A stretch of DNA of 61,089 bases from Flavobacteriales bacterium (lineage in GTDB: Bacteria > Bacteroidota > Bacteroidia > Flavobacteriales > JANQLC01). Made by a program: the position numbers and the translations under genes. Numbering within the stretch: position 1 is the first letter of the stretch; every line of letters starts with the position of its first letter. The notes below the pieces were generated by a model. The model did not search any database, was not told the origin of the DNA, and saw nothing but the letters and a program-made list of their open reading frames with translations. Positions 2,589-53,208 of the stretch are shown piece after piece. The stretch covers positions 1 to 61,089 of the forward strand of contig JANQLC010000011.1 in the NCBI GenBank assembly GCA_028280815.1, written 5' to 3'.

Positions 2589-3593
2589 TCACAACCTCGC
2601 TATGTGTTGCAGCAAATCGACCAGTTTGTCGGAATACCCCACTTCGTTATCATACCAGGCGATGAGTTTTACAAATTTGTCATTGAGCATCATGCCAGCC
2701 CCAGCATCGAACGCGCAAGTGTGGGTTTCCCCTACGAAATCACTGGATACAACGGGTTCATCTGTGTATTTCAGAATGCCCTTTAAATTCCCTTCCGCTT
2801 CTGCTTTTACGGCCTTTATCAGAGTATCGTAATCGGTGGCTCTTTCCAAGCGCAGGGTCAAGTCCACCACGGATACATCTGCAATCGGGACGCGCATAGC
2901 CATGCCGGTGAGCCTTCCGTCCAACGCAGGGATCACCTTACCCACTGCCTTGGCGGCTCCTGTCGTGGTGGGAATGATGTTTACCAGTGCGGAACGCCCC
3001 AAGCGATAGCTCTTCTTTGAAGGCCCGTCCACCAATCGCTGGGTAGAGGTAGCCGCGTGTACGGTGGTCATAAGCCCCTCTACAATGCCGAAGTGGTCGT
3101 GAATCACCTGGGCTAAGGGAGCGAGACAATTGGTCGTACAAGAGGCGTTTGAAACCAGGCTGTCGCTCGCTTGCGCCCGTTGGTGATTGACCCCCATCAC
3201 ATACATGGGTATGTCGTCTTTCGACGGGGCCGATAGGACTACCTTTTTGGCCCCGGCGCGTATATGCCCGCCCGCGGATTCCCGGGTTAAAAACAAGCCC
3301 GTAGATTCCACGATGTACGAGGCCCCGATCTCATCCCACCGCAAGTCACCCGGATTTTTTTCGGCAGTCACCCGAATTTCCTTGCCATTCACCGTGAGCC
3401 GATCCGCTTCTACGCCCAAAGTTCCCTGAAACCCGCCGTGAACGGAATCGTACTGCAGTAGGTACGCCATTTGTTCGGGCGCCAGCAGATCGTTGATGCC
3501 GACTACCTCGATGTCTGCGCGCCTCGTGGCAGCTGCAAAGACGAGACGCCCAATCCTTCCGAATCCGTTTATGCCTACTTTGATTTTCTCCAC
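2589..3593 (-). CDS. gap: Glyceraldehyde-3-phosphate dehydrogenase, type I
   Basis: Converts glyceraldehyde-3-phosphate, NAD+ and phosphate to 1,3-bisphosphoglycerate in glycolysis, with the reverse in gluconeogenesis. The 334 residues show the Rossmann start [14 protein letters not shown], an acidic residue after GIND expected for NAD rather than NADP preference, the catalytic [14 protein letters not shown] with its cysteine, and the C-terminal [15 protein letters not shown]. Length is standard. It lies 48 bp downstream of pfkA on the same strand, so the two probably share the promoter before pfkA. The 270 bp between gap and egtB holds no gene. Confidence 0.97.
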
Positions 3594-3641
3594 CTCTGCT
3601 CGTTTTGAGTCCTTTTCAAGTCCAGACTCATGTGTGGGATG

Positions 3642-4613
3642 TCACACGGCGGTGATATCCGCTATCTTTTTCAATTCTACGTCCAATGGGTTGTGCGCTT
3701 TGATGGCCTGGTCCAATGGTGTTTCCACCACTGCGTTGTGGCGAATGCCCACCATCAGGCCGGTTTTCCCGGCTAAGAGCGCTTCCACAGCAGCCACACC
3801 CAAACGGCTCGCCAATACGCGGTCATAACAGGAAGGGGCACCACCGCGTTGGATATGCCCCAAAACCGTCACGCGAATATCGTATTTCGGGTAACGCATT
3901 TTTACCGCTTTGGCCAGATCGAAAGCACTGCCCAACTGATCACCTTCTGCTACCACTACGATACTGGAGGACTTGCGGCTTTTGTGACTGCGGGACAAGC
4001 GGCTGAAGAGCGCCTCGAGCGCCATGTTTTCCTCCGGGATTAGAATCGCTTGTGCCCCTATGCCAATGCCGCTGTTCATCGCTATAAAACCAGCGTCTCG
4101 TCCCATCACCTCTACGAAGAACAACCGGTTGTGCGAGGTGGCTGTGTCTCGAATCTTGTCGATGGCCGCTACCACGGTGTTGAGCGCTGTGTCGTATCCG
4201 ATGGTCTGGTCGGTACCGTAGATATCATTATCAATCGTACCCGGAATGCCAATCACGCGAATCCCGTACTCCTTTTCAAAAATCACGCCGCCTGTGAAAG
4301 AGCCATCCCCGCCGATGACGATCAGCGCGTCTATGCCGTGCTGCACCAACTGCTCGTAGGCTTCTCTGCGTCCCGCTACCGTCTTAAACGATTCGGAACG
4401 GGCTGTCTTTAATATGGTGCCGCCCCGGCCGATTAAATTCTTAACCATTCGCGGACCCATGGGCACCAACTTGCCGGCTATCAATCCTTCATAGCCCAGG
4501 CGAACGCCCTTGCATTCGACGCGATAATAAGCACAAGCCCGCACCACAGCTCGTATCGCAGCATTCATGCCCGGCGCATCGCCACCCGAAGTCATCACCG
4601 CAATTTTCTTCAC
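3642..4613 (-). CDS. pfkA: ATP-dependent 6-phosphofructokinase
   Basis: Phosphorylates fructose-6-phosphate to fructose-1,6-bisphosphate. The N-terminus KKIAVMTSGGDAPGMNAAIR, the ATP-type loop VIGGDGSFTGG (Gly where PPi-dependent enzymes carry Asp) and the catalytic PGTIDNDIYGTD are visible. The longest frame starts at ATG 4673, but that ATG is inside a hairpin and upstream of a clear promoter box (4639-4646). I place the start at GTG 4613, giving 323 residues that begin exactly like the family. GTG 4622 is the alternative. It leads a pfkA-gap operon. Confidence 0.95.
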   Translation of the reverse strand: MKKIAVMTSGGDAPGMNAAIRAVVRACAYYRVECKGVRLGYEGLIAGKLVPMGPRMVKNLIGRGGTILKTARSESFKTVAGRREAYEQLVQHGIDALIVIGGDGSFTGGVIFEKEYGIRVIGIPGTIDNDIYGTDQTIGYDTALNTVVAAIDKIRDTATSHNRLFFVEVMGRDAGFIAMNSGIGIGAQAILIPEENMALEALFSRLSRSHKSRKSSSIVVVAEGDQLGSAFDLAKAVKMRYPKYDIRVTVLGHIQRGGAPSCYDRVLASRLGVAAVEALLAGKTGLMVGIRHNAVVETPLDQAIKAHNPLDVELKKIADITAV

Positions 4614-6515: not shown

Positions 6516-7853
6516 TCATGTGATGCCGCTGCTTTTGCTCATGAATGAGATTATTCTTCCACCCGCTCCCCGTCGTATGAGCTTCATCGCCTCAGCCATC
6601 TGAGCGAATTGTTTCAACAAGCGGTTGACCGCTTGAATCGAAGTGCCCGAACCCTTTGCAATTCGCCGCCTGCGACTGGAATTGATCTCAGACGGATTTT
6701 CCCGTTCATAAGGCGTCATGGAAAAGATGATGGCTTCCACTTGTTTAAAGGCATCGTCACCGATGTCTGCCCTCCGTAAAGCTCGTCCTGCACCGGGTAG
6801 CATGCCCAACAAATCCTTCGTGCTCCCCATGCGCTTGACGCGCTCGATCTGCTTGAGAAAATCATTGAAATCAAAGCGATTCTCAGCGATTCTTTTCTGG
6901 AGTTTGCGGGCTTCCCCTGCATCGTATTGCGCCTGTGCGCGTTCCACCAGCGAGACCACATCGCCCATGCCGAGTATTCGGTCGGCCATCCGTTTGGGAT
7001 AAAATACATCTATGGCATCCATCCGCTCGCCGGTGCTGATGAATTTAATAGGCTTATGCACCACCGATTTGATCGTCAAAGCAGCCCCACCACGGGCATC
7101 GCCATCCAATTTGGTCAATACCACACCATCGAAATCCAACCGGTCGTTAAACGCAGTGGCGGTATGCACGGCATCTTGACCGGTCATGGAATCCACTACA
7201 AAAAGCGTTTCTGAAGGCCTGATGGCTCGGTGTATATGGGAGACTTCATCCATCATTTCTGCATCCACCGCCAAACGGCCAGCGGTGTCCACAATTACCG
7301 GATTGCATCCCGCTGACTGGGCTCTTTGGATCCCTTGTCGGGCGATCGCAACGGGATCTGCACTGCCCTCGAGGGCGAAGACCGGTACGCCGATTTGCGC
7401 CCCCCATACCTGCAACTGCGCTACGGCAGCCGGACGGTGTACATCCCCGGCGACCAAAAGCGGCTTTTTCCCCTTTTTGGATTTGAGGTAATGTGCCAAT
7501 TTGACCGAAAAGCTGGTCTTGCCCGAACCCTGTAAGCCAGCGATTAAGATCGCGCTCGGATTTCCATCCATATGGATACCCACCTGTGTGCTGCCCATTA
7601 GATCGGCCAATGCGTTGCGCACGACTTTGACCATAAGCTGACCGGGGTTGAGCGCGGTGAGCACCTTTTGACCGATTGCCTGCGCCTTGACATCTCGTGT
7701 GAAATCCCGCGCTACCGCATAGCTCACGTCGGCATCGAGCAGTGCACGCCGTACTTCCCGCAGCGTTTCCGACACGTTTGCCTCGGTGATCACGTCGTGA
7801 CCCTTCAGCTTGTGGATGGCGTCCCTGAGCTTGTTCTGCAGATTTTGAAACAT
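6516..7853 (-). CDS. ffh: Signal recognition particle GTPase Ffh
   Basis: Binds SRP RNA and signal sequences and delivers ribosomes to FtsY at the inner membrane. The 445 residues show the N-domain (MFQNLQNKLRDAIHKLKG), the P-loop GLQGSGKTSFSVKLA, DTAGRLAVD, TKLDGDARGGAAL, and a C-terminal M domain with MLPGAG and SSRRRRIAKGSGTS. Length is standard. The start ATG follows a promoter box at 7864-7871 with only about ten bases between. The downstream neighbour is folD. Confidence 0.97.
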   Translation of the reverse strand: MFQNLQNKLRDAIHKLKGHDVITEANVSETLREVRRALLDADVSYAVARDFTRDVKAQAIGQKVLTALNPGQLMVKVVRNALADLMGSTQVGIHMDGNPSAILIAGLQGSGKTSFSVKLAHYLKSKKGKKPLLVAGDVHRPAAVAQLQVWGAQIGVPVFALEGSADPVAIARQGIQRAQSAGCNPVIVDTAGRLAVDAEMMDEVSHIHRAIRPSETLFVVDSMTGQDAVHTATAFNDRLDFDGVVLTKLDGDARGGAALTIKSVVHKPIKFISTGERMDAIDVFYPKRMADRILGMGDVVSLVERAQAQYDAGEARKLQKRIAENRFDFNDFLKQIERVKRMGSTKDLLGMLPGAGRALRRADIGDDAFKQVEAIIFSMTPYERENPSEINSSRRRRIAKGSGTSIQAVNRLLKQFAQMAEAMKLIRRGAGGRIISFMSKSSGIT

Positions 7854-7863
7854 ATCCTTTTTG

Positions 7864-7871
7864 CAAAGGTA
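7864..7871 (-). promoter_or_regulatory. -7 promoter box before ffh
   Basis: Minus-strand TACCTTTG followed by C, a perfect TAnnTTTG, ten bases before the ffh start codon. Confidence 0.6.
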
Positions 7872-8050
7872 TGAAAAACAAAAAGCTGTTAACCCACTTA
7901 GAAAAGGTGGAACTGCAAATAACCCATCCCCTATGAATTCGATGGAGATGGGGCGACAACAGGCATATTAAACGCGACCCACAGCTCGACCGAGGGTTCT
8001 GAACCCAAAGGCTTAAGCCACAGATGAGATAAAATGGGATGTCAGTCCTA

Positions 8051-8308
8051 CTAATAATGATATCGAAGCGAAACGATCACAACCGCATCGTCGGTTATCT
8101 TGTGCACCAGTCTGTGCGTTGAGTTGACCCGCCTGCTCCAGCAGCCGCTTAGCTCGTGCTTCAAGGGCTCGGGTTTGCCAATTCCGGAATACGGATCAGC
8201 CGATATGGATTTAAGCAGGGTTTCAACCCGCTCTTTAATGGCAGCACGCCCCGACCGATCCCAACATTCCAGGTCTCTCTTCGCCCTTTTGGTGAATGCT
8301 AAGGCCAC
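8051..8308 (-). CDS. yoeB: YoeB/Txe-family mRNA interferase toxin
   Basis: An 85-residue RelE-superfamily toxin expected to cleave mRNA on the ribosome. It follows the YoeB pattern: an FTKRAKRDLECW start, a central KPEPLKHELSGCWSRRVNSTHRLV with the basic and Ser-Arg-Arg catalytic-region residues, and a C-terminal VVIVSLRYHY whose final His-Tyr is typical. Its start overlaps the end of the upstream antitoxin by ten bases, so the pair is translationally coupled. Both genes look intact. Confidence 0.92.
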   Translation of the reverse strand: MALAFTKRAKRDLECWDRSGRAAIKERVETLLKSISADPYSGIGKPEPLKHELSGCWSRRVNSTHRLVHKITDDAVVIVSLRYHY

Positions 8309-8559
8309 AACTCATCCCAGCCTATCTCTTCTGTATCGCCTTTATCAGCTTGACGAATAGATGTGAGCAAATGCGCTCTGTTGGCCTGAGATGCCAATAA
8401 ATAATCGGTCTCAATCCATGAATTGTACGCTGAAATGGGAATCATGACAACATCTTCCTTATCTGAGCGATGGACTATAATCGTTTCTTTATCCACAGAT
8501 ACTTTATCGAGGATTTGTTTTGTCTTTCGATTCAATTGTGTATGATTGACCGTATCCAT
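8299..8559 (-). CDS. yefM: YefM/Axe-family antitoxin
   Basis: An 86-residue type II antitoxin that binds the adjacent toxin and represses the operon. The N-terminal DNA-binding half starts MDTVNHTQLNRKTKQILDKV. Then come VHRSDKEDVVMIPISAYNSW, the hallmark of Phd/YefM proteins, and a C-terminal toxin-binding tail ending IGWDELWP. The start is set at ATG 8559, giving the family N-terminus; a further ATG at 8589 would place coding sequence over the operator-like region. It is first in a two-gene operon with yoeB. Confidence 0.92.
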   Translation of the reverse strand: MDTVNHTQLNRKTKQILDKVSVDKETIIVHRSDKEDVVMIPISAYNSWIETDYLLASQANRAHLLTSIRQADKGDTEEIGWDELWP

Positions 8560-8573
8560 ATTCGTTTTTTTAT

Positions 8574-8590
8574 GTGTACAAGTATACAAA
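8574..8590 (-). promoter_or_regulatory. Operator-like TGTACA region upstream of yefM
   Basis: The core TGTACA (8575-8580) is followed after two bases by TATACA (8583-8588), making a broken dyad just before the yefM start. TGTACA is the known half-site core of YefM-YoeB operators. On the minus strand the same bases give TATACTTG, one mismatch from the -7 box, so repressor and polymerase would compete. Confidence 0.5.
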
Positions 8591-8771
8591 AAAATAACTG
8601 GAGCGCTTTGCTGGATTCCATCAGGTAATCCATATTTCTTTCAAACAACCCTACTTGGTAAAAAACAAGCAGTCCAATTTTGAATGATCCAGCAGTGAAA
8701 AGTCAGGCAATTCATTTCTTCCTTTTAGGACGGATCTGGATCGCAAGTCTCAAAAAATGGCAATCCGACGG

Positions 8772-10544
8772 CTACATCCGCTCCGGTGCAGCGATACCGA
8801 GCAAACGCAAAGCCGAGGCCAAGACCGCTGCGGTCTGGGCGGCTAACTGCAGCCGGAACCCCCTCAGGGCTGCGCTATCGGCGTTTAGGATACGAGTGCG
8901 CTGATAAAAATGGTTGAACAACCGGGCCAAATCGTAACTGTAATGGGCAATCCGCGCCGGGTTGAGCTGTTCAGCAGCGAGTTGTATCGCTTGGGGGAAC
9001 CGTTCCAGATGCTTTAAGACTTCGCGCTCTTGCGCTTCTATGGCTACGCATCCACCCCGCCATTCCCATGTGCCGGCGCTGCGCAACAGGGATTGAATGC
9101 GCGCATGGGTATATTGCAAAAAGGGGCCGGTGTTGCCGGTAAAATCAATCGACTCATCGGGATGGAACAAAATGCGCTTTTGGGGATCGACCTGTAAGAG
9201 ATGGTATTTCAGCGCCCCCATGCCAATCGCTTCGTACAATTGTTCCCTTTCCGCATCGGAACAGCCTTCTAACTTGCCCAAAGCCTCCCCTTTCCGCTTG
9301 GCAGCTCGGTGCATTTCATCCATCAAATCGTCTGCGTCTATCACGTTTCCCACCCGGGATTTCATCTTGCCCGAGGGCAGATCCACCATGCCGTAAGACA
9401 GGTGGTGGAGCCTATCCGCCCAGGCATAGCCCAAGCGCTTTAAGATCGAAAACAACACTTTAAAGTGGTAAGTCTGCTCGTCGCCAACGGTGTAGATCAC
9501 CCGGTCGAATTCGCGGTTTTTAAAGCGCTCGACAGCCGTTCCCAAATCCTGCGTGATATAGACCGAGGTGCCATCGCTTCGCAATACGACCTTTTCATCC
9601 AAGCCCGCATCGGTTAAGTCGCAACACACGCTGCCATCGGGCCTTTTATAAAACACACCTTTTTCCAGCCCCTGAGCGACCAAATCCTTGCCCGATAAGT
9701 AGGTATGACTCTCGTACTGGGACTCGTCGAAATCGACTCCGAGGCGGGCATAAGTCTCTGAAAAACCCTGATAAACCCAGCCGTTTATCTCATTCCACAA
9801 GGCGCGGGTTTTCCCGTCTCCAGCTTCCCATTTGCGCAACATCTCCTGCGCTTCTCGAAGCAGCGGAGCCTGGGTGCGGGCTTCCGACTCATCGCAGCCC
9901 CGGGCGATCAGCTCGGCCACTTGGGCGCGATACATCGCATCGAAACGCACGTAATACTTCCCGATCAGATGATCCCCCTTCACACCGCTGCGCACCGGCG
10001 TCTCACCCCGACCCCACTTTTGCCAAGCCAATATGGACTTGCAGATGTGAATACCGCGATCGTTGATCACCTGTGTTTTTCGGACGCGATGGCCGGCGGC
10101 CTGTAAGATTTCCGCGACCGAATAGCCGAGCAAATTGTTTCGTATGTGACCGAGGTGCAGGGGCTTGTTGGTGTTCGGCGAGGAATACTCCACCAGAGTT
10201 ACCCCCGCGCGTGCATCGATGGCAGCGCGACCAAAATCTTTGACCCCCTTTGTATCACTGAGCCAATTCAGATAGTAAGAATCTGAAATAGAGAGATTTA
10301 AAAACCCGTCAACCACATTGTAATCCGCCACGGCTGCAATCCGCTCTCGTAAAAACGCACCGATCGCATCGCCCAAGGCAGGGGGATGGGTCTGTAACCG
10401 CTTACACAACGGAAATACCACCAAGGTTATATCGCCTGCAAATTCCTTGCGGGTGGGTTGAAATTCTAAATTTGGGATTTCGTCCTGCGTCCGAGTCCGC
10501 AAAAAGCGGACTACTCCTTCGTGCAGCGCATCGGATAGCGACAT
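8772..10544 (-). CDS. argS: Arginyl-tRNA synthetase
   Basis: Class I synthetase charging tRNA-Arg. It has the N-terminal Arg-tRNA additional domain, the HIGH-type motif SSPNTNKPLHLGHIRNNLLG, the KMSKS-equivalent KMKSRVGN, and a C-terminal anticodon-binding helical domain ending in LRLLGIAAPERM. The start is placed at ATG 10544 (MSLSDALHEGVVRFL, 590 residues), the usual family N-terminus. Two upstream ATGs would add 20 residues unlike the family. It is transcribed alone, away from uvrA. Confidence 0.95.
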   Translation of the reverse strand: MSLSDALHEGVVRFLRTRTQDEIPNLEFQPTRKEFAGDITLVVFPLCKRLQTHPPALGDAIGAFLRERIAAVADYNVVDGFLNLSISDSYYLNWLSDTKGVKDFGRAAIDARAGVTLVEYSSPNTNKPLHLGHIRNNLLGYSVAEILQAAGHRVRKTQVINDRGIHICKSILAWQKWGRGETPVRSGVKGDHLIGKYYVRFDAMYRAQVAELIARGCDESEARTQAPLLREAQEMLRKWEAGDGKTRALWNEINGWVYQGFSETYARLGVDFDESQYESHTYLSGKDLVAQGLEKGVFYKRPDGSVCCDLTDAGLDEKVVLRSDGTSVYITQDLGTAVERFKNREFDRVIYTVGDEQTYHFKVLFSILKRLGYAWADRLHHLSYGMVDLPSGKMKSRVGNVIDADDLMDEMHRAAKRKGEALGKLEGCSDAEREQLYEAIGMGALKYHLLQVDPQKRILFHPDESIDFTGNTGPFLQYTHARIQSLLRSAGTWEWRGGCVAIEAQEREVLKHLERFPQAIQLAAEQLNPARIAHYSYDLARLFNHFYQRTRILNADSAALRGFRLQLAAQTAAVLASALRLLGIAAPERM

Positions 10545-18250: not shown

Positions 18251-20686
18251 ATGCATGCGGAGACTCAGCGGGATATGTCCTTTGCAGAATTCAAAAAGAA
18301 CGTACTCGACGATTACAGGTTGGCGTTGCTCAGCCGCCAGGCAAGCCTTGTCGGACGCCGAGAAGTACTGAGTGGAAAAGCCAAGTTCGGGGTTTTCGGA
18401 GACGGCAAAGAAATCCCCCAAATCGCTATGGCCAAGGTGTTTGAAAACGGGGATTTCAAATCGGGTTACTACCGGGATCAGACCCTTATGATGGCGATTG
18501 GGCAACTGACCCTAAGTCAATTCTTTGCATCGCTTTACGCCGATACCCAACTCGAGCGGGAGCCCCACTCGTATGGCCGGCAGATGAACGGCCATTTCGG
18601 CACGCACTCCCTACGTCCCGATGGCACCTGGAAAGATTTGATGCAGCAGAAAAACGCAAGTGCTGACATATCCTGCGTGGCCGGACAGATGCCCCGTTTA
18701 CTCGGGCTGGCACAAGCCTCTTCGGTATATAGAGCGCTAAAAGGAATCGGGGACGCTCACAAATTTTCCCAGGGTGGAAACGAAGTCGCCTTTGGCACCA
18801 TTGGAGAGGGCGGCACCTCTGAAGGGCTCTTTTGGGAGGTTGTCAACGCGGCTGGCGTCCTACAGGTGCCCATGGTCCTATCGGTTTGGGACGACGGTTA
18901 TGCCATTTCCGTTCCCAAGCAATACCAGACCGTCAAAGGGTGCATTTCCGATGCCTTGCAAGGGCTGCAAAGGCAAGCGGGCACAAACGGTTGGGAAATC
19001 CTGAAGGCCAAGGGCTGGGATTACCCGGGGCTCGTCGAGACCTATCAGAAAGCTGCCCGACTAGCCCGCAAGCAACACGTACCCGTATTGGTACACGTAG
19101 AAGAATTAACGCAGCCCCAAGGGCATACCACTTCGGGCTCGCACGAGCGTTACAAATCCAAAGAGCGCCTGAAATGGGAAGCGGAATACGATTGCATCGC
19201 CAAGATGCGCGAGTGGATCCTGGGCTTTGAAATCCACGCCGATGACGACGTCTATCACATCGCAGGAGAAAAAGCGCTCAGCGCGATTGAAGCAGCCGCC
19301 CAACAAGCGGTAAACCAAGCGCGAAGAGAAGCTTGGAACGCTTATATAAACCCCATCAAGCGAGAAAGCGCTGTGGTCTGTGCGCACTTACAAGCCCTGT
19401 GCGAAGAATCCGCGCAAAGGGAATGGATCGGCAGCGCAATCGCTGAACTCCAGGGCAATGAGGCGCCGAAGAAGCGAGCACTCTTATCCACTGCGCGGCA
19501 AGTGCTACACCGCATAGCGTGCGAAGATACACCGGCTAAAAAATCCTTGCAACGGTGGGTGTCGGATTATACCCGAGCACAAGATCAAATCTATGGATCC
19601 CTATTGTACAGTGAGTCCACTCAGAGTTACCGACACATACCCGCCGTTGCGGCTGAATACCAGGCCGATGCGCCGGAAGTAGATGGGCGAATCGTATTGA
19701 GAGACAACTTTGATCGGCTCTTTGCCCAATATCCCGAACTGATGGCTTTTGGCCAAGACAGCGGCTTACTCGGCGACGTCAACCAAGGCTTGGAGGGTCT
19801 GCAGAAAAAATATGGCAGCACGCGCATAGCCGATGCGGGAATCCGGGAATCCGCCATCGTGGGGCGCGGCATCGGTTTGGCCATGCGAGGCTTACGCCCC
19901 ATCGCAGAGATCCAATACTTAGACTACATCCTATACGCCTACTCCACCCTCAGCGATGATCTGGCCACCCTGCACTACCGCAGCTGCGGTGGCCAAAAAG
20001 CACCTGTCATCATTCGCACACGCGGACACAGGCTCGAGGGAATCTGGCATTCGGGCTCACCCATGGGGGCGCTGCTCAACGGTTTTCGAGGCATTTACCT
20101 CTTAACCCCCCGAAATATGACACAGGCGGCCGGCTTTTACAATACCCTACTCCAATGCGACAACCCCGCCATCGTAGTGGAAAGCCTGAGGGGCTACCGT
20201 TTAAAAGAGCGGTTGCCGAGCAACCTAGGCGAATTCAAAACGCCCATCGGCCGGGTGGAATTTTTGAGAAGTGGACGCGATATAACCCTGGTCACCTACG
20301 GTTTTATGTGCGAAATTGCCATGCGTACGGCAAAAAGGCTCGCGGAATTTGGCATCGATGTAGAAGTGATCGACGCCCAGTCTTTGATACCCTTTGACGA
20401 TGCTCGGGCCGTGGTAAGCAGCCTGAAAAAGACCGGTCGCTTGGCCCTAGCCGACGAAGACGTGCCGGGCGGTTGTTCCGCGTATTTACTGCGAGAAATC
20501 CTCGAAGCCCAAGACGGATATCGCTATTTGGACAGCAAACCGCTCACCATCACCGCGAGAGAACACCGCCCTGCTTATGGCAGTGACGGAGATTATTTCT
20601 CCAAACCCTCGGAAGACGACGTTTTCGAAAAGCTATACGACTTGATGCACGAGGCAAATCCCAAAAAGTTTCCCGCTCTATTCTGA
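18251..20686 (+). CDS. 2-oxoacid dehydrogenase E1 component, fused alpha and beta subunits
   Basis: A thiamine-diphosphate enzyme that decarboxylates a branched-chain 2-oxoacid (or pyruvate) and passes the acyl group to an E2 lipoyl protein. The alpha half has SYGRQMNGHFGTHS, the TPP/Mg region IGEGGTSEG with SVWDDGYAISVP, and VEELTQPQGHTTSGSHERY. The beta half, from about residue 480, has FGQDSGLLGDVNQGL, AEIQYLDYILYAYSTL and the C-terminal VIDAQSLIPFD. The fused, 811-residue form is common in Bacteroidota. Substrate is usually annotated as 2-oxoisovalerate but is not proven by motifs. No E2 or E3 gene is adjacent. Its last codons are copied in the tandem repeat downstream. Confidence 0.92.
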   Translation: MHAETQRDMSFAEFKKNVLDDYRLALLSRQASLVGRREVLSGKAKFGVFGDGKEIPQIAMAKVFENGDFKSGYYRDQTLMMAIGQLTLSQFFASLYADTQLEREPHSYGRQMNGHFGTHSLRPDGTWKDLMQQKNASADISCVAGQMPRLLGLAQASSVYRALKGIGDAHKFSQGGNEVAFGTIGEGGTSEGLFWEVVNAAGVLQVPMVLSVWDDGYAISVPKQYQTVKGCISDALQGLQRQAGTNGWEILKAKGWDYPGLVETYQKAARLARKQHVPVLVHVEELTQPQGHTTSGSHERYKSKERLKWEAEYDCIAKMREWILGFEIHADDDVYHIAGEKALSAIEAAAQQAVNQARREAWNAYINPIKRESAVVCAHLQALCEESAQREWIGSAIAELQGNEAPKKRALLSTARQVLHRIACEDTPAKKSLQRWVSDYTRAQDQIYGSLLYSESTQSYRHIPAVAAEYQADAPEVDGRIVLRDNFDRLFAQYPELMAFGQDSGLLGDVNQGLEGLQKKYGSTRIADAGIRESAIVGRGIGLAMRGLRPIAEIQYLDYILYAYSTLSDDLATLHYRSCGGQKAPVIIRTRGHRLEGIWHSGSPMGALLNGFRGIYLLTPRNMTQAAGFYNTLLQCDNPAIVVESLRGYRLKERLPSNLGEFKTPIGRVEFLRSGRDITLVTYGFMCEIAMRTAKRLAEFGIDVEVIDAQSLIPFDDARAVVSSLKKTGRLALADEDVPGGCSAYLLREILEAQDGYRYLDSKPLTITAREHRPAYGSDGDYFSKPSEDDVFEKLYDLMHEANPKKFPALF

Positions 20687-20910
20687 GGAATCGCGGGCGC
20701 GACATCGGTCGGGATTCGACATCCAACGGAGCTAAACACAGCGGTATCCCCAAATTTTCCGCCCTATTCTGAGGAATCGCGGGCGCGACATCGGTCGGGA
20801 TTCGACATCCAACGGAGCTAAACACAGTGGTATCCCCAAATTTTCCGCCCTATTCTGAGGAATCATGGATGCGACATCGGTCGGGGTGCGACACAGCTAA
20901 ACACAGTGGA
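20658..20910 (+). repeat. Tandem repeat, 86-bp unit, three copies, copying the E1 3' end
   Basis: The segment beginning CTATTCTGAGGAATC starts at 20678, 20764 and 20850, giving a constant 86-bp period. Copies one and two are nearly identical from there to the next copy. Copy three differs (GCGGGC becomes ATGGAT) and has a deletion. Each copy includes a version of the E1 C-terminal codons and stop: KFPALF-stop in the gene and KFSALF-stop in copy two. It is a tandem duplication of a gene end, not a spacer-repeat array. Confidence 0.9.
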
Positions 20911-46021: not shown

Positions 46022-47560
46022 ATGCGCATTAAAGGGGGCATCGCCATATTGGATTTCGGCTCGCAATACAGCCAACTCATCGCCCGAAGGATACGCAACC
46101 ACAACATATACGCTGAAGTCGTCCCGCACTGGGCGTGCATCGAACACATTCAAAGCTTAGGACCCCAAGGCATCATCCTATCTGGCGGACCGGCTTCGGT
46201 GTATGCGGAAAAAGCGCCGCTACCCGACCCTGCCCTATTTGATACCGGCATTCCCATTTTGGGCATCTGCTACGGCATGCAAGTCACGACAGCACTGTTG
46301 GGCGGCAGGGTGGCACAAGCGCGGAAAAAAGAATTTGGGAAAGCGCATCTATACATAGACCAGGCCTATCCGCTATATAAAAACATCCCCGATGGGAGCC
46401 AAGTGTGGATGAGCCATGCCGACCACATCACAGAAATGCCAAAGGGTTTTCAACAATTGGCCCACACGGATTCATCCATCGCCTCCACGGCCGATTTGAA
46501 GCGCCAAATTTATACCGTCCAGTTTCACCCAGAGGTTACCCATTCAGTGTACGGCGAGGAAATATTGAAAAATTTTGCAGTCGAAATCTGCGGTTGCAAG
46601 CCGAGTTGGGATATGGGCGATTTCATCGAGCAAAGCGTTTCAGCGATCCGGGAGAAAGTGGGTGACAAAAGGGTGATACTCGGACTCTCTGGCGGTGTGG
46701 ATTCTTCCGTAGCCGCTGTTTTAATCCACCGGGCTATCGGCGACCAATTGACTTGCCTCTTCATAGACACGGGCTTGCTCCGCAAGGGAGAAGCACACAA
46801 AGCGATGCAAACCTATGGGGAACACTTTGAGATGCGCATCCGGTTGGTCACCGCGCAAGCGCAGTTTTTGGAAAAGTTAGAAGGCATCACGGCGCCCGAA
46901 CAAAAGCGTAAGATCATCGGACAGACCTTTATCGAAGTCTTCGACAGGGAATCCAAGAAGATACAAAACGTCGATTTTCTGGCACAGGGCACCATTTATC
47001 CCGATGTGATCGAATCCCAGTCCGTAAAAGGACCCTCAGACACGATCAAATCCCACCACAACGTCGGCGGGCTGCCCGAATCGATGGGCTTGAGGCTCAT
47101 CGAACCCCTGCGCGAATTATTCAAAGATGAAGTGCGGGAAGTGGGTAAAAAACTGGGCATTCCAGCAGTGCTGATCGACAGGCATCCCTTTCCAGGCCCG
47201 GGTTTGGGCATCCGAATTTTGGGTGAAGTCTCAGCTGAAAAACTAGCCATTTTACAGGAGGCCGATGCCATTCTCATCGAGGAAATACGAAAAGCCCAAT
47301 TGTATCACCGAGTATCCCAGGCTTTCGTGGTCTTGTTGCCCGTAAAATCCGTAGGCGTGATGGGTGATGCGCGGACCTACGAATACACAGCGGTGATACG
47401 CTCGGTCAATACCACAGACTTCATGACGGCAACCTGGTCTCACCTGCCTCACGACTTTTTGGAAAGGGCGGGCAACCGGATCATCAATGAAGTGGCCGGG
47501 ATCAACCGGGTTGCCTACGACATCAGCAGCAAACCGCCGGCTACCGTTGAATGGGAGTGA
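46022..47560 (+). CDS. guaA: GMP synthase (glutamine-hydrolysing)
   Basis: Amidates XMP to GMP. The 512 residues have an N-terminal class I glutamine amidotransferase (ILDFGSQYSQLIARRIR, LSGGPASVYA, nucleophile Cys in LGICYGMQ, FHPEVTHS), an ATP-pyrophosphatase domain (LGLSGGVDSSVAAVLI, DTGLLRKGE) and the C-terminal dimerisation domain (HPFPGPGLGIRILGEVS, PPATVEWE). Length is standard. It is followed by an inserted restriction-modification unit and then guaB. Confidence 0.97.
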   Translation: MRIKGGIAILDFGSQYSQLIARRIRNHNIYAEVVPHWACIEHIQSLGPQGIILSGGPASVYAEKAPLPDPALFDTGIPILGICYGMQVTTALLGGRVAQARKKEFGKAHLYIDQAYPLYKNIPDGSQVWMSHADHITEMPKGFQQLAHTDSSIASTADLKRQIYTVQFHPEVTHSVYGEEILKNFAVEICGCKPSWDMGDFIEQSVSAIREKVGDKRVILGLSGGVDSSVAAVLIHRAIGDQLTCLFIDTGLLRKGEAHKAMQTYGEHFEMRIRLVTAQAQFLEKLEGITAPEQKRKIIGQTFIEVFDRESKKIQNVDFLAQGTIYPDVIESQSVKGPSDTIKSHHNVGGLPESMGLRLIEPLRELFKDEVREVGKKLGIPAVLIDRHPFPGPGLGIRILGEVSAEKLAILQEADAILIEEIRKAQLYHRVSQAFVVLLPVKSVGVMGDARTYEYTAVIRSVNTTDFMTATWSHLPHDFLERAGNRIINEVAGINRVAYDISSKPPATVEWE

Positions 47561-47689: not shown

Positions 47690-48430
47690 TCACCTTTTAG
47701 TGCCAGAATTAAATCTGACCAATCTAACCCAATCTATACCTCCGTCTTCCCGACAAAAGTCATGGATAAATTCCTTTGTAAACCGGTTGAGGGTTTTTGA
47801 ATAAGAGATCACAAAATCGTCATTCCGCTCTTTGGACTTATGACCTAAGGGCTCAACGATTTCAGTGTATAGTTTATCATTTCCAGAAATAAATTTCCAA
47901 AACGCCTGTCCACAATATTTGTGATAATCTCCTTTATCGGAGTTGTTATCCATACCATAACAACAGCCATTTATAGGCATGACCATTAGATTTGAGTTAC
48001 TCGTCCTCAATTTTCTCATCGCTGCCTTAAAATCGGATTTCATCTTTGAAATTTGGCTGCTATTTCCCCAATTCGGCCCGGACTTGATGTTGACTATATA
48101 TCGTATATCTCCTTTATCGAATTCCAGATCAATGTTTTGAATACCGGATTTCCAGCTATTATAAACTCTTTGATTTATAAAAATAGCGAGACCCTCTAGC
48201 CAATCTCCAAATATGGTCTCTTCGTTTGAAGAAATAAAAGCGTCTGTAATACTTTTGACAATTTCACCAGCAGTTAAAAGATGTTTTGCTTTAAACAAAT
48301 AGGGATTTTTCTTTTTGAGTACAGTTTTGAGCGGTAGCTCATCAAGCCTTTCAATCCTTTTCTTATGAAAGACTTCAATGTTATTCTCTACGTACTCGGT
48401 AACATTCGTTATTAAGTCCAGTCGTTTCAT
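47690..48430 (-). CDS. Type II restriction endonuclease, PmeII family
   Basis: A 246-residue nuclease. The series HKKRIERLDELPLKTVLKKK, NPYLFKAKHLLTAGEIVKS, EETIFGDWLEGLAIFINQRV, IDLEF followed by YIVNIKSGPNWGNSSQI, INGCCYGMDN and HKYCGQAFWKFISG matches PmeII-type enzymes as I remember them. Asp in IDLEF and Lys in IKSG fit a PD-(D/E)xK centre. The start is set at ATG 48430; ATG 48472 would add 14 residues. It overlaps the methylase 3' end by 50 bp. Both genes look more AT-rich than their neighbours, pointing to acquisition. The recognition site cannot be read. Confidence 0.85.
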   Translation of the reverse strand: MKRLDLITNVTEYVENNIEVFHKKRIERLDELPLKTVLKKKNPYLFKAKHLLTAGEIVKSITDAFISSNEETIFGDWLEGLAIFINQRVYNSWKSGIQNIDLEFDKGDIRYIVNIKSGPNWGNSSQISKMKSDFKAAMRKLRTSNSNLMVMPINGCCYGMDNNSDKGDYHKYCGQAFWKFISGNDKLYTEIVEPLGHKSKERNDDFVISYSKTLNRFTKEFIHDFCREDGGIDWVRLVRFNSGTKR

Positions 48431-49268
48431 ATTTTTTCTCAGGTTCAAATAAAACCAACTCGTCTGCTTCAATCTGATCTCTTACCCCTTTATAGTAATC
48501 GTAAAGAATTTCTATACCAATCGAATTTCTTCCCATTCTTCGCGAAGCCAAATTCGTAGTCCCTGAACCCATAAAAGGATCGATTACCGTATCATTTGGT
48601 CGTGTAAAGAGCTTGATAAACCATTCGGGAAGTTCTTTTGGGAATGTAGCGCTGTGATTTTTGTTGTTGCACTCAGTTGCGAGATGCAATACATTTGTCG
48701 GATAAACCTTATCTCTATTTAACCAGTTTGATACGTTCTTTCCAAATCCACTCCCAACCTTTGATTTATCCCTTAGCTTATCTACATCGCTTAAATTTTT
48801 CAATCGGGTTTTAGCCCAACCACCAACTGGAATCATAACTTTTTCTTGATACATATTGAATTTTTTACTCTTGTTAAACTGTATAAGGCGTTCCCATGAA
48901 TCGCGAAAACGGTTGGGCCACTTTCCGGGATAACTGTTTTTTTTATGCCAGATAAATTCCTCAGTCCAGAACCAACCTTGCTTGCGCATTGCCAAAATCA
49001 GCTCCATAACATAAGTACTCCGTTCGCCATTTATAACTCTTTCCTTTATGTTCAGTATAAATGTGCCAGTTGGTTTTAAAATTCGCAACAACTCTTTTGA
49101 AATGGGTAAAAACCAATCCACATACTTATCGGGGTGAATGCCCCCGTAAGTTTTTTTCCGCTGATCTGCATAAGAAGGAGACGTAAAAATTAAGTCTACA
49201 ACATTTTCAGGTAAATGACATAAAACCTCAGCGCAATCCCCAAATATGATATCTGTTTTAACCCTCAT
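48381..49268 (-). CDS. DNA methyltransferase, N4-cytosine/N6-adenine type (TSPSY)
   Basis: A 295-residue modification enzyme of the intact restriction system. Motif IV is TSPSYADQR, a TSPxY form that favours N4-cytosine methylation. The SAM-binding DPFMGSGTTNLASRRMGRNS lies near the C-terminus, so the motif order is the beta class. Other parts, ELLRILKPTGTFILNIKE and WPNRFRDSWERLIQF, are typical. It is transcribed before the nuclease, which gives protection first. A dyad lies directly before its start. Confidence 0.92.
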   Translation of the reverse strand: MRVKTDIIFGDCAEVLCHLPENVVDLIFTSPSYADQRKKTYGGIHPDKYVDWFLPISKELLRILKPTGTFILNIKERVINGERSTYVMELILAMRKQGWFWTEEFIWHKKNSYPGKWPNRFRDSWERLIQFNKSKKFNMYQEKVMIPVGGWAKTRLKNLSDVDKLRDKSKVGSGFGKNVSNWLNRDKVYPTNVLHLATECNNKNHSATFPKELPEWFIKLFTRPNDTVIDPFMGSGTTNLASRRMGRNSIGIEILYDYYKGVRDQIEADELVLFEPEKKYETTGLNNECYRVRRE

Positions 49269-49545: not shown

Positions 49546-51012
49546 ATGTCTGTAAGGGAAAAAATCACCCAAGAGGGCATCACCTTTGACGATGTGCTCT
49601 TGGTGCCCGCCTATTCTGCCATAACCCCCGACCGCGTTTCACTTCAAACCCAGCTCACCCGAAACATCGGCCTGAAAATCCCCATCCTCAGCGCAGCGAT
49701 GGATACGGTTACCGAACACGAGCTGGCCATCGCATTGGCGCACCAGGGGGGCATGGGAATCATTCACAAAAACTTGACCATCGAACGACAAGCGGCTGAG
49801 GTAAACCGCGTAAAGCGCTACGAGAGCGGCGTGATCACCAACCCGATCACGCTCGACAAGGATTCCGTACTCGGCAATGCTTTTGCCATTATGAAAGAAT
49901 ACCGCATTTCGGGCTTGCCGGTCGTAGAGCCAGACGGCACGCTCATCGGCATCATCACCAACCGCGATTTGAAGTACGAGAGAGAGATGAGCCGGCCCGT
50001 AGCGGATTACATGACCAAGGAAGCACTCATCACCTCCAAAGAGGGTATCACCATCGCCGAAGCCAAGGAAATTCTGTTAAAAAATCGAATTGAAAAACTG
50101 CCCATCGTCGATGGGTATTTCAAATTAAAAGGTTTGATCACCATCAAGGACATCGACAACCTAGCGGAATACCCCGACGCTTGTAAAGATGGTAAAGGCA
50201 GGCTGCGCGTCGGAGCAGCCATCGGGGTCGGCGATTCGGCCTTGGAACGCGCCAAAGCCCTGATCCGAGCTGGAGTCGATATTTTATCCATAGACTCTGC
50301 CCACGGGCATTCCGCCGGCGTTATCGACACAGTGCGAAAAATCAAGGCCACCTTTCCAGAAATCGACCTAATCGGGGGTAATATCGTAACCGCCGAAGCG
50401 GCACAGGCGCTGATCGAGGCGGGTGTCGACGCGGTAAAAGTAGGGGTCGGCCCGGGCTCGATTTGCACGACCCGCGTAGTAGCCGGTGTAGGCATGCCCC
50501 AGCTCACGGCTATTGGCAACGTATGCGAATACTGCGAGGGAAAAGAGATCGGTGTGATCAGCGATGGCGGCATCAAACACGCTGGCGATATCGTCAAGGC
50601 CATCGCCGCAGGCGCCCACTGCGCAATGCTCGGAAACCTATTGGCCGGAACCGACGAAGCACCGGGTGAAGAGATCATCTACAACGGCAGAAAATTTAAA
50701 ACCTACGCGGGCATGGGCTCTTTGGCAGCCATGAGGCGCGGTAGCAAAGACCGCTACTTCCAGGGTGGAAGCGAAGCCAAAAAACTCGTCCCAGAAGGCA
50801 TCGAAGCCCGCGTTCCATACAAGGGAAAGCTGGCGGATATCGTCTACCAGCTCAACGGTGGCCTGCGTTCGGGAATGGGCTACTGCGGCACCGCATCCAT
50901 CGCGGATCTGATCCAAAATGGAAAATTTGTGAAAATCACCCAATCCGGGTTGATGGAGAGCCATCCCCATGATGTAAACATCACCAGAGAAGCACCCAAT
51001 TATCAGCGATAG
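49546..51012 (+). CDS. guaB: IMP dehydrogenase
   Basis: Oxidises IMP to XMP, the committed step to GMP. The 488 residues show ITFDDVLLVPAYSAITPDRV, two CBS domains (about residues 95-215), the catalytic loop VGPGSICTTRVVAGVGMPQ with its cysteine, ISDGGIKHAGDIVKAIAAGA, MGSLAAMRRGSKDRYFQ and the flap GLRSGMGYCG. The stop codon lies inside a tandemly repeated segment that continues downstream. It is separated from guaA only by the inserted restriction genes. Confidence 0.97.
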   Translation: MSVREKITQEGITFDDVLLVPAYSAITPDRVSLQTQLTRNIGLKIPILSAAMDTVTEHELAIALAHQGGMGIIHKNLTIERQAAEVNRVKRYESGVITNPITLDKDSVLGNAFAIMKEYRISGLPVVEPDGTLIGIITNRDLKYEREMSRPVADYMTKEALITSKEGITIAEAKEILLKNRIEKLPIVDGYFKLKGLITIKDIDNLAEYPDACKDGKGRLRVGAAIGVGDSALERAKALIRAGVDILSIDSAHGHSAGVIDTVRKIKATFPEIDLIGGNIVTAEAAQALIEAGVDAVKVGVGPGSICTTRVVAGVGMPQLTAIGNVCEYCEGKEIGVISDGGIKHAGDIVKAIAAGAHCAMLGNLLAGTDEAPGEEIIYNGRKFKTYAGMGSLAAMRRGSKDRYFQGGSEAKKLVPEGIEARVPYKGKLADIVYQLNGGLRSGMGYCGTASIADLIQNGKFVKITQSGLMESHPHDVNITREAPNYQR

Positions 51013-51235
51013 CAGCTTTCGAGACGAACAGACCCTTTTCCGACAATCCCCTAACACCCTGCAAGCCATTTCAAAAATCCATCCCCACGATGTAACACCC
51101 CCAAAGAAGCACCCAATTATCAGCGATAGCTCTTTAAGAACGATAAAATCAATTCTCAGCAACCGCCCGTACAAAATAACCCGCAAGCCATTTCAAAGGG
51201 CCACCCACACGATGTAACACCCCAAAAAGGCACCA
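50961..51235 (+). repeat. Tandem repeat, about 120-bp unit, copying the guaB 3' end
   Basis: The end of guaB (CCATCCCCATGATGTAAACA, then GAAGCACCCAATTATCAGCG and the stop) recurs at 51079 with 118-bp spacing and partly at 51201 with 122-bp spacing. The shared second part GCAAGCCATTTC ends each unit. Single-base losses shift the frame, so copies are non-coding. The last copy is truncated. Confidence 0.85.
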
Positions 51236-51328
51236 AACCGACCGCGCCTTTTTTGAGCCGACAAAACCAATTCCCTGCAAGGGCTCGCATAAGCATCCTG
51301 CGCTTCTTGAGCCCCGTTGGCAATTCAA

Positions 51329-51540
51329 TCAACAGGCATCTAGCTTTTCTCTCGCCATCTCCTGAAATTTTTTATCCAATCCCATTTTAAACGCCTCACC
51401 CGCTTCATCAAAGGTGTTTAACAATTCCGCAAAGCTGCCGCTACCGCCGATAAAACCCCAGTACGCCGCCCCGACTAAGAAATCGTTGGGCGGGTTCATC
51501 ATACCCACTTCGGTAAATCTCAAACAGGGAATTATGCATT
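51329..51540 (-). pseudogene. C-terminal remnant of a type II restriction endonuclease
   Basis: About 70 codons, ending at the stop at 51329, read CLRFTEVGMMNPPNDFLVGA, then YWGFIGGSGSFAELLNTFDE, then a Lys-rich tail. The sequence FWxFIGGxGxxxELLxxFDExG is a common C-terminus of type II nucleases such as the TdeIII-like group. No start or catalytic part belongs to it; immediately upstream is the end of the broken HaeIII-like gene. It is probably what is left of a third nuclease. Confidence 0.5.
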
Positions 51541-52330
51541 TAATCAAACACGACCGGAATTTCATGCCTAGCCACACCTGGTGGCATTCCAATAAATTTA
51601 ATGTCAAACTTTAAAGATGGCTCAACCTGTGAACGTGCATTGTGCAAGCGAAATGACAACTGCCACCCACCCGTGAACGATGCGATAAGAGTATTGAATG
51701 AGGCTCTTTTGCGGCTGATACCATCTATCCGGTCTGGGACTCTCCATTTCTTCCCCCATCCCAAAGTTCCGTCGATATTGAATGATTGAATCGCTACCGT
51801 TCCGTTTTCCTTGACGACTTTGTAAAAATCATATTCGCCGATTAAATACTGAAATATTCCCCTTACGAATGCGCTTCCAAAACCTTCACACAATCTTTTC
51901 AATTCATCTCAAAAGCCGTTAAAATCGGTAAATAATACCTGTTTTCCTTCCACTCTAAGCCAAAATCAATTCTGGCCGATAACCTAAAATGCTCGATGGC
52001 ATCATGCCTGTTTTTAGCTGATATGCCTATGCTGTCCCCGTTTTAAGCGCGACTACTAGATCTCTCACATCCCTTTTTATCCCTTTCCTGATCGGCTTGT
52101 AAATAAACGCTTTTAGCATGTTTAAACCCGTCTTCATGACATCCCAAAAAGACAGCTGCTTCATCAGCGGCACCTCGCATTTTATCCCGCTCATATTCGG
52201 GATGAATCTCAAACGACCTTTTTGCACTCGCTTTAGAACCATTAGAAACAAATGGAATCGATAAAAATTCGCTCAATTCTACCGCTATACAGTATTCAAA
52301 TGCCTTGCCTGATTCAGTCTGAGAAGGCAT
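51540..52330 (-). pseudogene. Frameshifted HaeIII-like restriction endonuclease
   Basis: The frame from ATG 52330 begins SQTESGKAFEYCIAVELSEF and runs to YLQADQ near 52090. The next stretch, GIKRDVRDLVVALKTG, is in another frame. From about 52039 the first frame resumes with SIGISAKNRHDAIEHFRLSA and RIDFGLEW. Near 51911 a further shift leads to DELKRLCEGFGSAFVRGIFQ and on to GGWQLSFRLHNARSQVEPSL, ending EIPVVFD at 51540. In order these resemble the HaeIII family (ISAKHRHxAIKHSRLS, GWQLSFRIHNA). At least two uncompensated disruptions make it inactive. It starts two bases after the D12 methylase stop. Confidence 0.75.
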
Positions 52331-52332
52331 GA

Positions 52333-53208
52333 TTAATATCTCTTTGTAAAGTCCTCGCTAAAGATGAGCAACTCATTTGATCTTTTATTCTTACTCATAC
52401 CATAAGCCCATTGGGGAATTAATGTGGTATATCCCTTATACAAGGCCCTGACTTTCTCACAATCGTTATAAGACAACACCCAAGCCTTTCGCTCCCTTAG
52501 AATTTCTGCCAGTCTCTCATGGTCGAAATTTTCATGTATATTCCCTCTATTGCCATATAGCTTTTCTCCATTCGCATAAGGTGGGTCGAGATATAAGAAG
52601 TCGTGGGGATGCGCTTTAAGCGATTCTTCAAAGTCTGCTCTTTCAACTTCGAGATTTTTAACGTGGAAGCGTTCGAGTCTTTTAATGGCTGATTCGGTAA
52701 AACGCGGGTGATCTGGAGACATGCCACCCGATAGGGTTGTGCCTGAAAAAGAGCAGCGATTCAAGACAAAGAAAACAGCAGCTCTTTCTTCTTTGGTTTC
52801 AATTTCCATATATTTAGACCGCAAGGCATAGAACTTCGATTTTGTCAGGGGATGATACTTCCTCACCCTTTTTACCAATTCATCGGGGTTTTTCAACAAC
52901 GACTGCCAAAACGCTACCAAAGGCTCGAAAATATCATAACCGTAAACCCTAACGCCGCGCTGTGCAAGTGCAATTTCAAGTGAACCTCCACCGATAAATG
53001 GAGAACACAATGCATTCACATCAGGCGGAAAATATGTGACGATATCTCTTACCGCCCTCGTCTTTCCGCCCGGATAGCGCAAAGGAGATCGAGTAAAGGA
53101 TGTATCCTTATCGCCCTTGTTTTCCGACGAAGCGCCAACCGTGTCAACAACAGCGCCTTTTAAGCTGGCATCGATGGGATCAGCTGCTGCTTTTATCGGT
53201 CTGTGCAT
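52333..53208 (-). CDS. D12-class N6-adenine DNA methyltransferase
   Basis: A 291-residue Dam-type enzyme. The motifs are RSPLRYPGGKTRAVRDI, SAM-binding SPFIGGGSLEIALAQRG, the catalytic FLYLDPPYANGEKLYG (DPPY) and AWVLSYNDCEKVR. The first 35 residues (to about KDTSF) are unlike the family and may be a non-conserved extension. The paired nuclease gene downstream is broken, so this is now an orphan methylase that may still mark the genome or protect against the same specificity from outside. Confidence 0.92.
   Translation of the reverse strand: MHRPIKAAADPIDASLKGAVVDTVGASSENKGDKDTSFTRSPLRYPGGKTRAVRDIVTYFPPDVNALCSPFIGGGSLEIALAQRGVRVYGYDIFEPLVAFWQSLLKNPDELVKRVRKYHPLTKSKFYALRSKYMEIETKEERAAVFFVLNRCSFSGTTLSGGMSPDHPRFTESAIKRLERFHVKNLEVERADFEESLKAHPHDFLYLDPPYANGEKLYGNRGNIHENFDHERLAEILRERKAWVLSYNDCEKVRALYKGYTTLIPQWAYGMSKNKRSNELLIFSEDFTKRY

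What the first reader, a model, noticed from the sequence alone, without database searches (positions are those of the whole stretch)
51329..53208. Decayed restriction system with surviving methylase on the other side of guaB
The D12 methylase is intact, but its HaeIII-like nuclease is broken by several frameshifts, and the tail of yet another nuclease follows. Together with the PmeII unit, guaB is flanked by three nuclease genes of which one appears functional. This suggests repeated arrival and loss of restriction systems at one site.
Basis: partly seen in the sequence, partly recalled or inferred. Interest (0 to 1): 0.6.

Follow-up and report, generated by a model that had tools for sequence, protein, structure and literature searches.

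The report
Decayed GGCC restriction unit, surviving methylase
Next to the guaB gene this bacterium carries the wreck of a DNA-cutting defence system: its protective methylase is still whole, its cutting enzyme is broken in four places, and the stump of an older cutting enzyme lies directly behind it. It is a clear example of how defence genes come and go, but the kind of system is already known.

Summary
52333-53208(-) is an intact D12-class methyltransferase. 51356-51520(-) is the C-terminal tail of a TdeIII-like endonuclease; the rest of that gene is absent. The lesions are not sequencing noise: 0 of 122 conserved genes (136 kb) in this genome are broken.

One correction: the methylase is probably not an adenine methylase. 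Its best solved relative (132 bits, against 48 for DpnM) is M.CbeI, an alpha-class N4-cytosine GGCC methylase whose partner CbeI is a HaeIII isoschizomer. The unit is best read as a decayed CbeI-type GGCC system that now leaves an orphan, probably GGm4CC, methylase. Bartonella carries the same M-then-R pair, nearly intact in one genome and decayed in others.

Repeated arrival and loss at guaB fits the anatomy: three endonuclease families, a junction of about 20 bp, low-GC inserts, and guaA-guaB only 73 bp apart in the relative with the closest guaB. No close relative is held, so recurrence rests on one genome. Novelty is low: a new, decayed member of a known kind.

The parts
52333..53208 (-). 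Intact D12-fold (alpha-class) DNA methyltransferase, M.CbeI-like, predicted GGCC N4-cytosine; DPPY at about 52576-52587
   Evidence: Pfam D12 5e-36; best PDB match 7m6b = M.CbeI E=2e-37; 83 of 87 invariant columns kept; only copy in the genome
51540..52330 (-). Remnant of HaeIII-family restriction endonuclease, the downstream partner gene of the methylase; broken
   Evidence: RE_HaeIII 2.5e-24 on the C-terminal piece; both halves matched; 47% identity to the Bartonella partner enzyme L049
52087..52090 (-). Frame break 1 in the HaeIII-like remnant
   Evidence: frameshift-aware alignment to two relatives
52034..52041 (-). Frame break 2 in the HaeIII-like remnant
   Evidence: frameshift-aware alignment to three relatives
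51949..51954 (-). Point of an in-frame internal deletion of about 35 residues (profile positions about 130-168 missing); approximate
51906..51907 (-). Frame break 3 in the HaeIII-like remnant
   Evidence: same place with three relatives
51356..51520 (-). C-terminal tail of a TdeIII-family endonuclease (last ~55 residues); rest of gene and its methylase absent
   Evidence: tblastn E=5e-7 against L074 TdeIII; Pfam RE_TdeIII 1.5e-4, below cut-off; no other part nearby
51013..51328 (+). Two diverged tandem copies of the 3' end of guaB with its flank (spacing 118 and 122 bp), between guaB and the tail
   Evidence: repeats D1, D3, D4, alignment; found nowhere else in the genome
49546..51012 (+). guaB (IMP dehydrogenase), the gene the units flank
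   Evidence: 62-67% identity to guaB of relatives of the same order in the best matches
48381..49268 (-). N6_N4 (beta-class) DNA methyltransferase of the intact unit between guaA and guaB
   Evidence: Pfam 2.6e-42
47690..48472 (-).
   Evidence: Pfam RE_EcoO109I 1.2e-86 over the whole profile
46022..47560 (+). guaA (GMP synthase), neighbour of guaB
   Evidence: orthologous pair with a 73 bp gap in L106

Best explanation
This is a decayed Type II restriction-modification unit of the CbeI kind: an alpha-class (D12-fold) methylase that most likely makes GGm4CC, followed directly by a HaeIII-family endonuclease predicted to cut GGCC. It landed beside guaB on, or in place of, an older TdeIII-type unit, of which only the last ~55 residues of the endonuclease remain. 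The endonuclease then lost function through three frameshifts and one internal deletion, while the methylase stayed under constraint. The likely reason is that a cell can lose the cutter freely but cannot lose the methylase while any cutter activity remains. What is left is probably an orphan GGCC methylase that marks the chromosome and could still protect it against GGCC-cutting enzymes. Shown by sequence: the genes, their families, the lesions, the junction and the relatives. Inferred: GGCC specificity, N4-cytosine chemistry, current methylase activity and the order of events.
For: Methylase and endonuclease are 2 bp apart on one strand in M-then-R order, as in Bartonella L049 where both are near intact. 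The methylase is far closer to M.CbeI (PDB 7m6b, 132 bits) than to the adenine enzymes DpnM (48) or Dam (35). M.CbeI is experimentally an N4-cytosine GGCC methylase annotated as 'D12 adenine-specific', partnered with a HaeIII isoschizomer (PMC3425538). Three Nostocales plasmids carry a D12 methylase beside a HaeIII-family endonuclease, in R-then-M order. Both gene trees put the window with Bartonella (methylase 98/92; endonuclease 82/78). Lesions. Conserved genes intact elsewhere. TdeIII tail within about 20 bp of the HaeIII-like stop codon. Low GC. The genome holds no C5 methylase that could be the usual HaeIII partner.
Against: Specificity and chemistry are inferred from relatives at about 30-50% identity; DPPY alone does not tell m6A from m4C. 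The endonuclease tree is only moderately supported. GGCC is depleted in this genome (third lowest of 256 tetramers), but relatives without a known GGCC system show the same, so depletion does not prove past GGCC restriction. No close relative was available to date the events or measure selection on the methylase.
Confidence: 0.78

Rival explanations
1. The frameshifts are assembly or base-calling errors and the endonuclease is intact in the cell, so this is a working GGCC restriction system.
For: The breaks at 52034-52041 and 51906 lie at or near runs of four identical bases, where indel errors are commonest; raw reads were not available.
Against: 0 of 122 conserved genes (136 kb) in the same genome show a frameshift or internal stop, against three in 0.8 kb here; the ~35-aa deletion cannot be a base-calling error; the genome scores 92% complete.
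Confidence: 0.05
2. The methylase is an ordinary N6-adenine D12 enzyme of another specificity, and the HaeIII-like fragment is an unrelated neighbour left by a different system.
For: Library names call it D12 N6-adenine; HaeIII-family enzymes are paired with C5 methylases in several genomes.
Against: Bartonella keeps the same two genes in the same order; best structural relative is M.CbeI; HaeIII-family partners of D12 methylases recur in Nostocales plasmids and Caldicellulosiruptor.
Confidence: 0.1
3. The two nuclease fragments came in together as one already decayed piece by ordinary recombination, so there was one arrival and no repeated targeting of guaB.
For: Only one genome shows the locus; the HaeIII-like and TdeIII-like fragments lie on the same strand within about 20 bp; no flanking target duplication was found around either unit.
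Against: A separate, intact, compositionally distinct EcoO109I-type unit lies on the other side of guaB, and the pair is adjacent without inserts in G003, so at least two separate insertions are needed.
Confidence: 0.3
4. The orphan methylase has been taken over for host regulation, like the GGm4CC enzyme M.Ssp6803II of Synechocystis.
For: Intact and conserved at 83 of 87 invariant positions while the partner decayed; M.Ssp6803II affects transcription and replication (PMC6560206).
Against: No population data; persistence may only mean that decay of the nuclease was recent.
Confidence: 0.15

Closest known systems
CbeI / M.CbeI of Caldicellulosiruptor bescii (PMC3425538; PDB 7M6B)
   Same: HaeIII-isoschizomer endonuclease next to an alpha-class, DPPY-bearing methylase annotated as D12 adenine-specific; best PDB match to the window methylase
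   Different: CbeI is active and its methylase is proven GGm4CC; here the endonuclease is broken and specificity is only predicted; different phylum
Bartonella D12 methylase + HaeIII-family endonuclease (L043, L046-L049; methylase alone on plasmid pBHa, L032)
   Same: Same gene order M then R; 52-57% (methylase) and about 47% (endonuclease) identity; several copies also decayed
   Different: L049 is nearly intact; different hosts and genomic sites
Nostocales plasmid pair (L034, L036, L038)
   Same: HaeIII-family endonuclease beside D12 methylase
   Different: Order R then M; both genes intact; methylase only about 37% identical
Classical HaeIII-type systems with C5 methylase (L040 in the same order; L071, L072, L073)
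   Same: Same endonuclease family
   Different: Partner is a cytosine-C5 methylase; none is found in this genome
TdeIII-type unit of G020 (L074)
   Same: Tail homologous to the last ~55 residues of its endonuclease
   Different: Complete methylase and endonuclease there; only the tail here

Membership tests
CbeI-type GGCC restriction-modification system | Alpha-class (D12-fold) methylase with DPPY, nearer to M.CbeI than to adenine methylases | tested here: met
   7m6b 132 bits against 48 for DpnM and 35 for Dam; identity of 7m6b
CbeI-type GGCC restriction-modification system | Adjacent HaeIII-family endonuclease gene | tested here: met
   RE_HaeIII halves directly downstream
CbeI-type GGCC restriction-modification system | Both genes intact | tested here: not met
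   three frame breaks and an internal deletion in the endonuclease; hence filed as a decayed remnant
CbeI-type GGCC restriction-modification system | Methylates GGCC at N4-cytosine | not testable with these tools
   needs methylation data or enzyme assay
HaeIII family endonuclease (PF09556) | Profile match above curated cut-off | tested here: met
   86.4 bits against cut-off 25 for the C-terminal piece; 33.4 bits for the N-terminal piece
HaeIII family endonuclease (PF09556) | Complete reading frame | tested here: not met
TdeIII family endonuclease (PF09520) | Profile match above curated cut-off | tested here: not met
   21.9 bits against 27.2; only the last 36 profile positions are present
TdeIII family endonuclease (PF09520) | Homology to a full-length member | tested here: met
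   aa 204-258 of L074 TdeIII, E=5e-7
Orphan DNA methyltransferase | Intact methylase without a functional partner nuclease nearby | tested here: met
   the only D12 match in the genome. The intact EcoO109I-type unit next door has its own methylase

The most novel reading that the evidence does not exclude
The three endonuclease families around guaB have family-typical targets that are variants of one motif: EcoO109I RGGNCCY, TdeIII GGNCC, HaeIII GGCC (specificities of the named family members from own knowledge, not tested here). GGNCC is also the most depleted of all 256 XYNZW patterns in this genome (0.63 of expectation). If this is not coincidence, overlapping specificities made the genome permissive for one another: methylation or site depletion left by one system lowered the cost of acquiring the next, giving a succession of related-specificity systems at one site.
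Probability: 0.1. Interest if true: 0.65.

Novelty: new member of a known kind. Interest (0 to 1): 0.36.

Why it matters
A large survey found that solitary methylases rarely arise by decay of complete systems inside a species (PMC4176335). This locus shows that route half way: partner endonuclease recognisable but dead, methylase whole. The related Bartonella loci show the pair in several states of decay. It also gives a concrete warning for annotation: a 'D12 N6-adenine' methylase beside a HaeIII-like nuclease is better predicted as a GGCC N4-cytosine enzyme of the M.CbeI type.

Tried and rejected
Single-protein scan of genome contigs with the window methylase: no relative; repeating with a two-row alignment that included Bartonella gave seven. 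Phage records: no match for the endonuclease piece. Plasmid search with the TdeIII tail: only chance hits. Looking for the TdeIII N-terminus or its methylase elsewhere in the window: none. Looking for direct repeats that flank either inserted unit as target duplications: none convincing. Using GGCC depletion as proof of past GGCC restriction: rejected as non-specific, because relatives without a known GGCC system are as depleted (G004, G071, f6 regions). GGNCC depletion is more discriminating (rank 1 here in both halves of the sample and in TdeIII-bearing G020; rank 256 in G004 and G071) but is also rank 1 in pooled regions of family f6, so it is only suggestive. Base-calling error as the cause of the frameshifts: rejected.

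Full report
What was checked. The finding covers 51329-53208 on the minus strand, downstream of guaB (49546-51012, plus strand). The window is contig C42 of a 1.59 Mb, 42-contig genome that is 92% complete and is the only one of its family held. guaA lies at 46022-47560.

The methylase. 52333-53208 encodes a 291-aa protein with the D12 profile (5e-36) and is the only match to this methylase in the genome. It keeps 83 of 87 columns that are invariant in nine relatives. Nearest relatives are a Caldilineaceae MAG (62%), Bartonella chromosomes and a Bartonella plasmid (52-57%) and a Rickettsiales MAG (57%). A tree places it with the Caldilineaceae and Bartonella proteins (98/92), inside a larger clade that contains methylases from viral contigs.

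The endonuclease. Directly downstream, 51540-52330 is a HaeIII-family endonuclease remnant. A frameshift-aware alignment against three relatives (Bartonella L049, G137, a Streptococcus plasmid) puts frame breaks at about 52087-52090, 52034-52041 and 51906-51907 (the Streptococcus alignment does not cover the first). It also shows a missing in-frame block of about 35 residues near 51950. The GISAK segment, likely part of the nuclease core by analogy with PD-(D/E)XK enzymes (own knowledge, not tested), is still present in sequence but is cut off from its N-terminal part by frame breaks.

Is it real decay? Proteins from about 1.5 Mb of relatives' DNA were searched against 727 kb of this genome. 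They found 122 conserved gene loci (136 kb) with no frameshift and no internal stop; two flagged cases are terminal stops. Three frameshifts in 0.8 kb plus a deletion are therefore local decay, not assembly noise. Raw reads were not available.

The second tail. 51520-51356 aligns with residues 204-258 of a 262-residue TdeIII endonuclease from the same order (L074; E=5e-7). The Pfam match to the same region is below cut-off. No other TdeIII part and no partner methylase was found nearby. The HaeIII-like gene ends at 51540, so the junction between the two systems is about 20 bp wide. The simplest reading is that the HaeIII-type unit landed in or replaced a TdeIII-type unit on the same strand.

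The other side of guaB. 47690-48472 is a full-length EcoO109I-family endonuclease (1.2e-86) overlapping the end of an N6_N4 methylase at 48381-49268. Their GC is 36-38%, against 52-55% for guaA and guaB; the HaeIII-type unit is at 42-44%. In G003, the relative with the most similar guaB (67%), guaA and guaB are adjacent with 73 bp between them, so this insert separated a gene pair.

What the methylase probably does. A D12 'adenine' methylase beside a HaeIII-like nuclease looks contradictory, because GGCC has no adenine. The best solved relative of the window methylase is PDB 7m6b at 132 bits, against 48 for DpnM and 35 for Dam. 7M6B is M.CbeI of Caldicellulosiruptor bescii (PMC8616854). M.CbeI was annotated as D12 adenine-specific but was shown to be an alpha-class N4-cytosine methylase with a DPPY motif, acting on GGCC and protecting against CbeI, a HaeIII isoschizomer (PMC3425538). 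A Synechocystis GGm4CC methylase affects transcription (PMC6560206). The same pairing of D12 methylase and HaeIII-family nuclease is found in Bartonella (M then R) and on Nostocales plasmids (R then M). Other HaeIII-family nucleases have C5 methylase partners, and this genome has no C5 methylase. In the endonuclease tree the window groups with Bartonella (82/78), and D12-paired and C5-paired enzymes separate (73/85); support is moderate.

Parallel decay. In Bartonella the pair is near intact in L049 (the endonuclease ends about 10 residues early). It is broken in the endonuclease in L043 and in both genes in L046; L048 is also broken. On plasmid pBHa (L032) the methylase stands alone. The same unit has therefore decayed more than once, sometimes with the methylase kept.

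Site depletion. GGNCC is the most depleted of 256 XYNZW patterns in this genome (0.63) and GGCC the third most depleted tetramer (0.75). GGCC depletion is common in the order and is not informative. GGNCC depletion also appears in TdeIII-bearing G020 and in pooled f6 regions but not in G003, G004 or G071. This is suggestive only.

Verdict on the interpretation. Decay with a surviving methylase is established. Several arrivals are well supported by three nuclease families and separate inserts. Recurrence at this site across lineages could not be tested. As a kind of thing it is known; the value lies in the caught-in-the-act decay and in the corrected prediction of the methylase.

Noticed in passing
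window 50961-51227: The 3' end of guaB (last ~17 codons with flank) is followed by two diverged tandem copies, spaced 118 and 122 bp, between guaB and the TdeIII tail; unique in the genome. Could be a plain tandem duplication or a scar of earlier insertions.
   Followed up: partly
G000 C16:1019-1714 (L229), C9:56362-56973 (L230), C13:14623-15272 (L231): Three further N6_N4 methylase genes elsewhere in this genome carry an internal stop or a frameshift, while conserved genes are intact: restriction-modification genes seem to decay genome-wide.
   Followed up: partly
L107 (G168) 3106-3999 and 7661-9145: A relative in another family of the order has an unrelated D12 methylase about 3.7 kb from guaB.
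   Followed up: no
L050-L057, viral contigs: Uncultured viral contigs encode methylases, most of them 44-46% identical to the window methylase, with no recognisable HaeIII-family gene beside them in the stretches held: possible anti-restriction GGCC methylases.
   Followed up: no
window 20669-20893: Tandem array of 2.6 copies of an 86-bp unit, 93% matches, at the end of a dehydrogenase-like gene.
   Followed up: no
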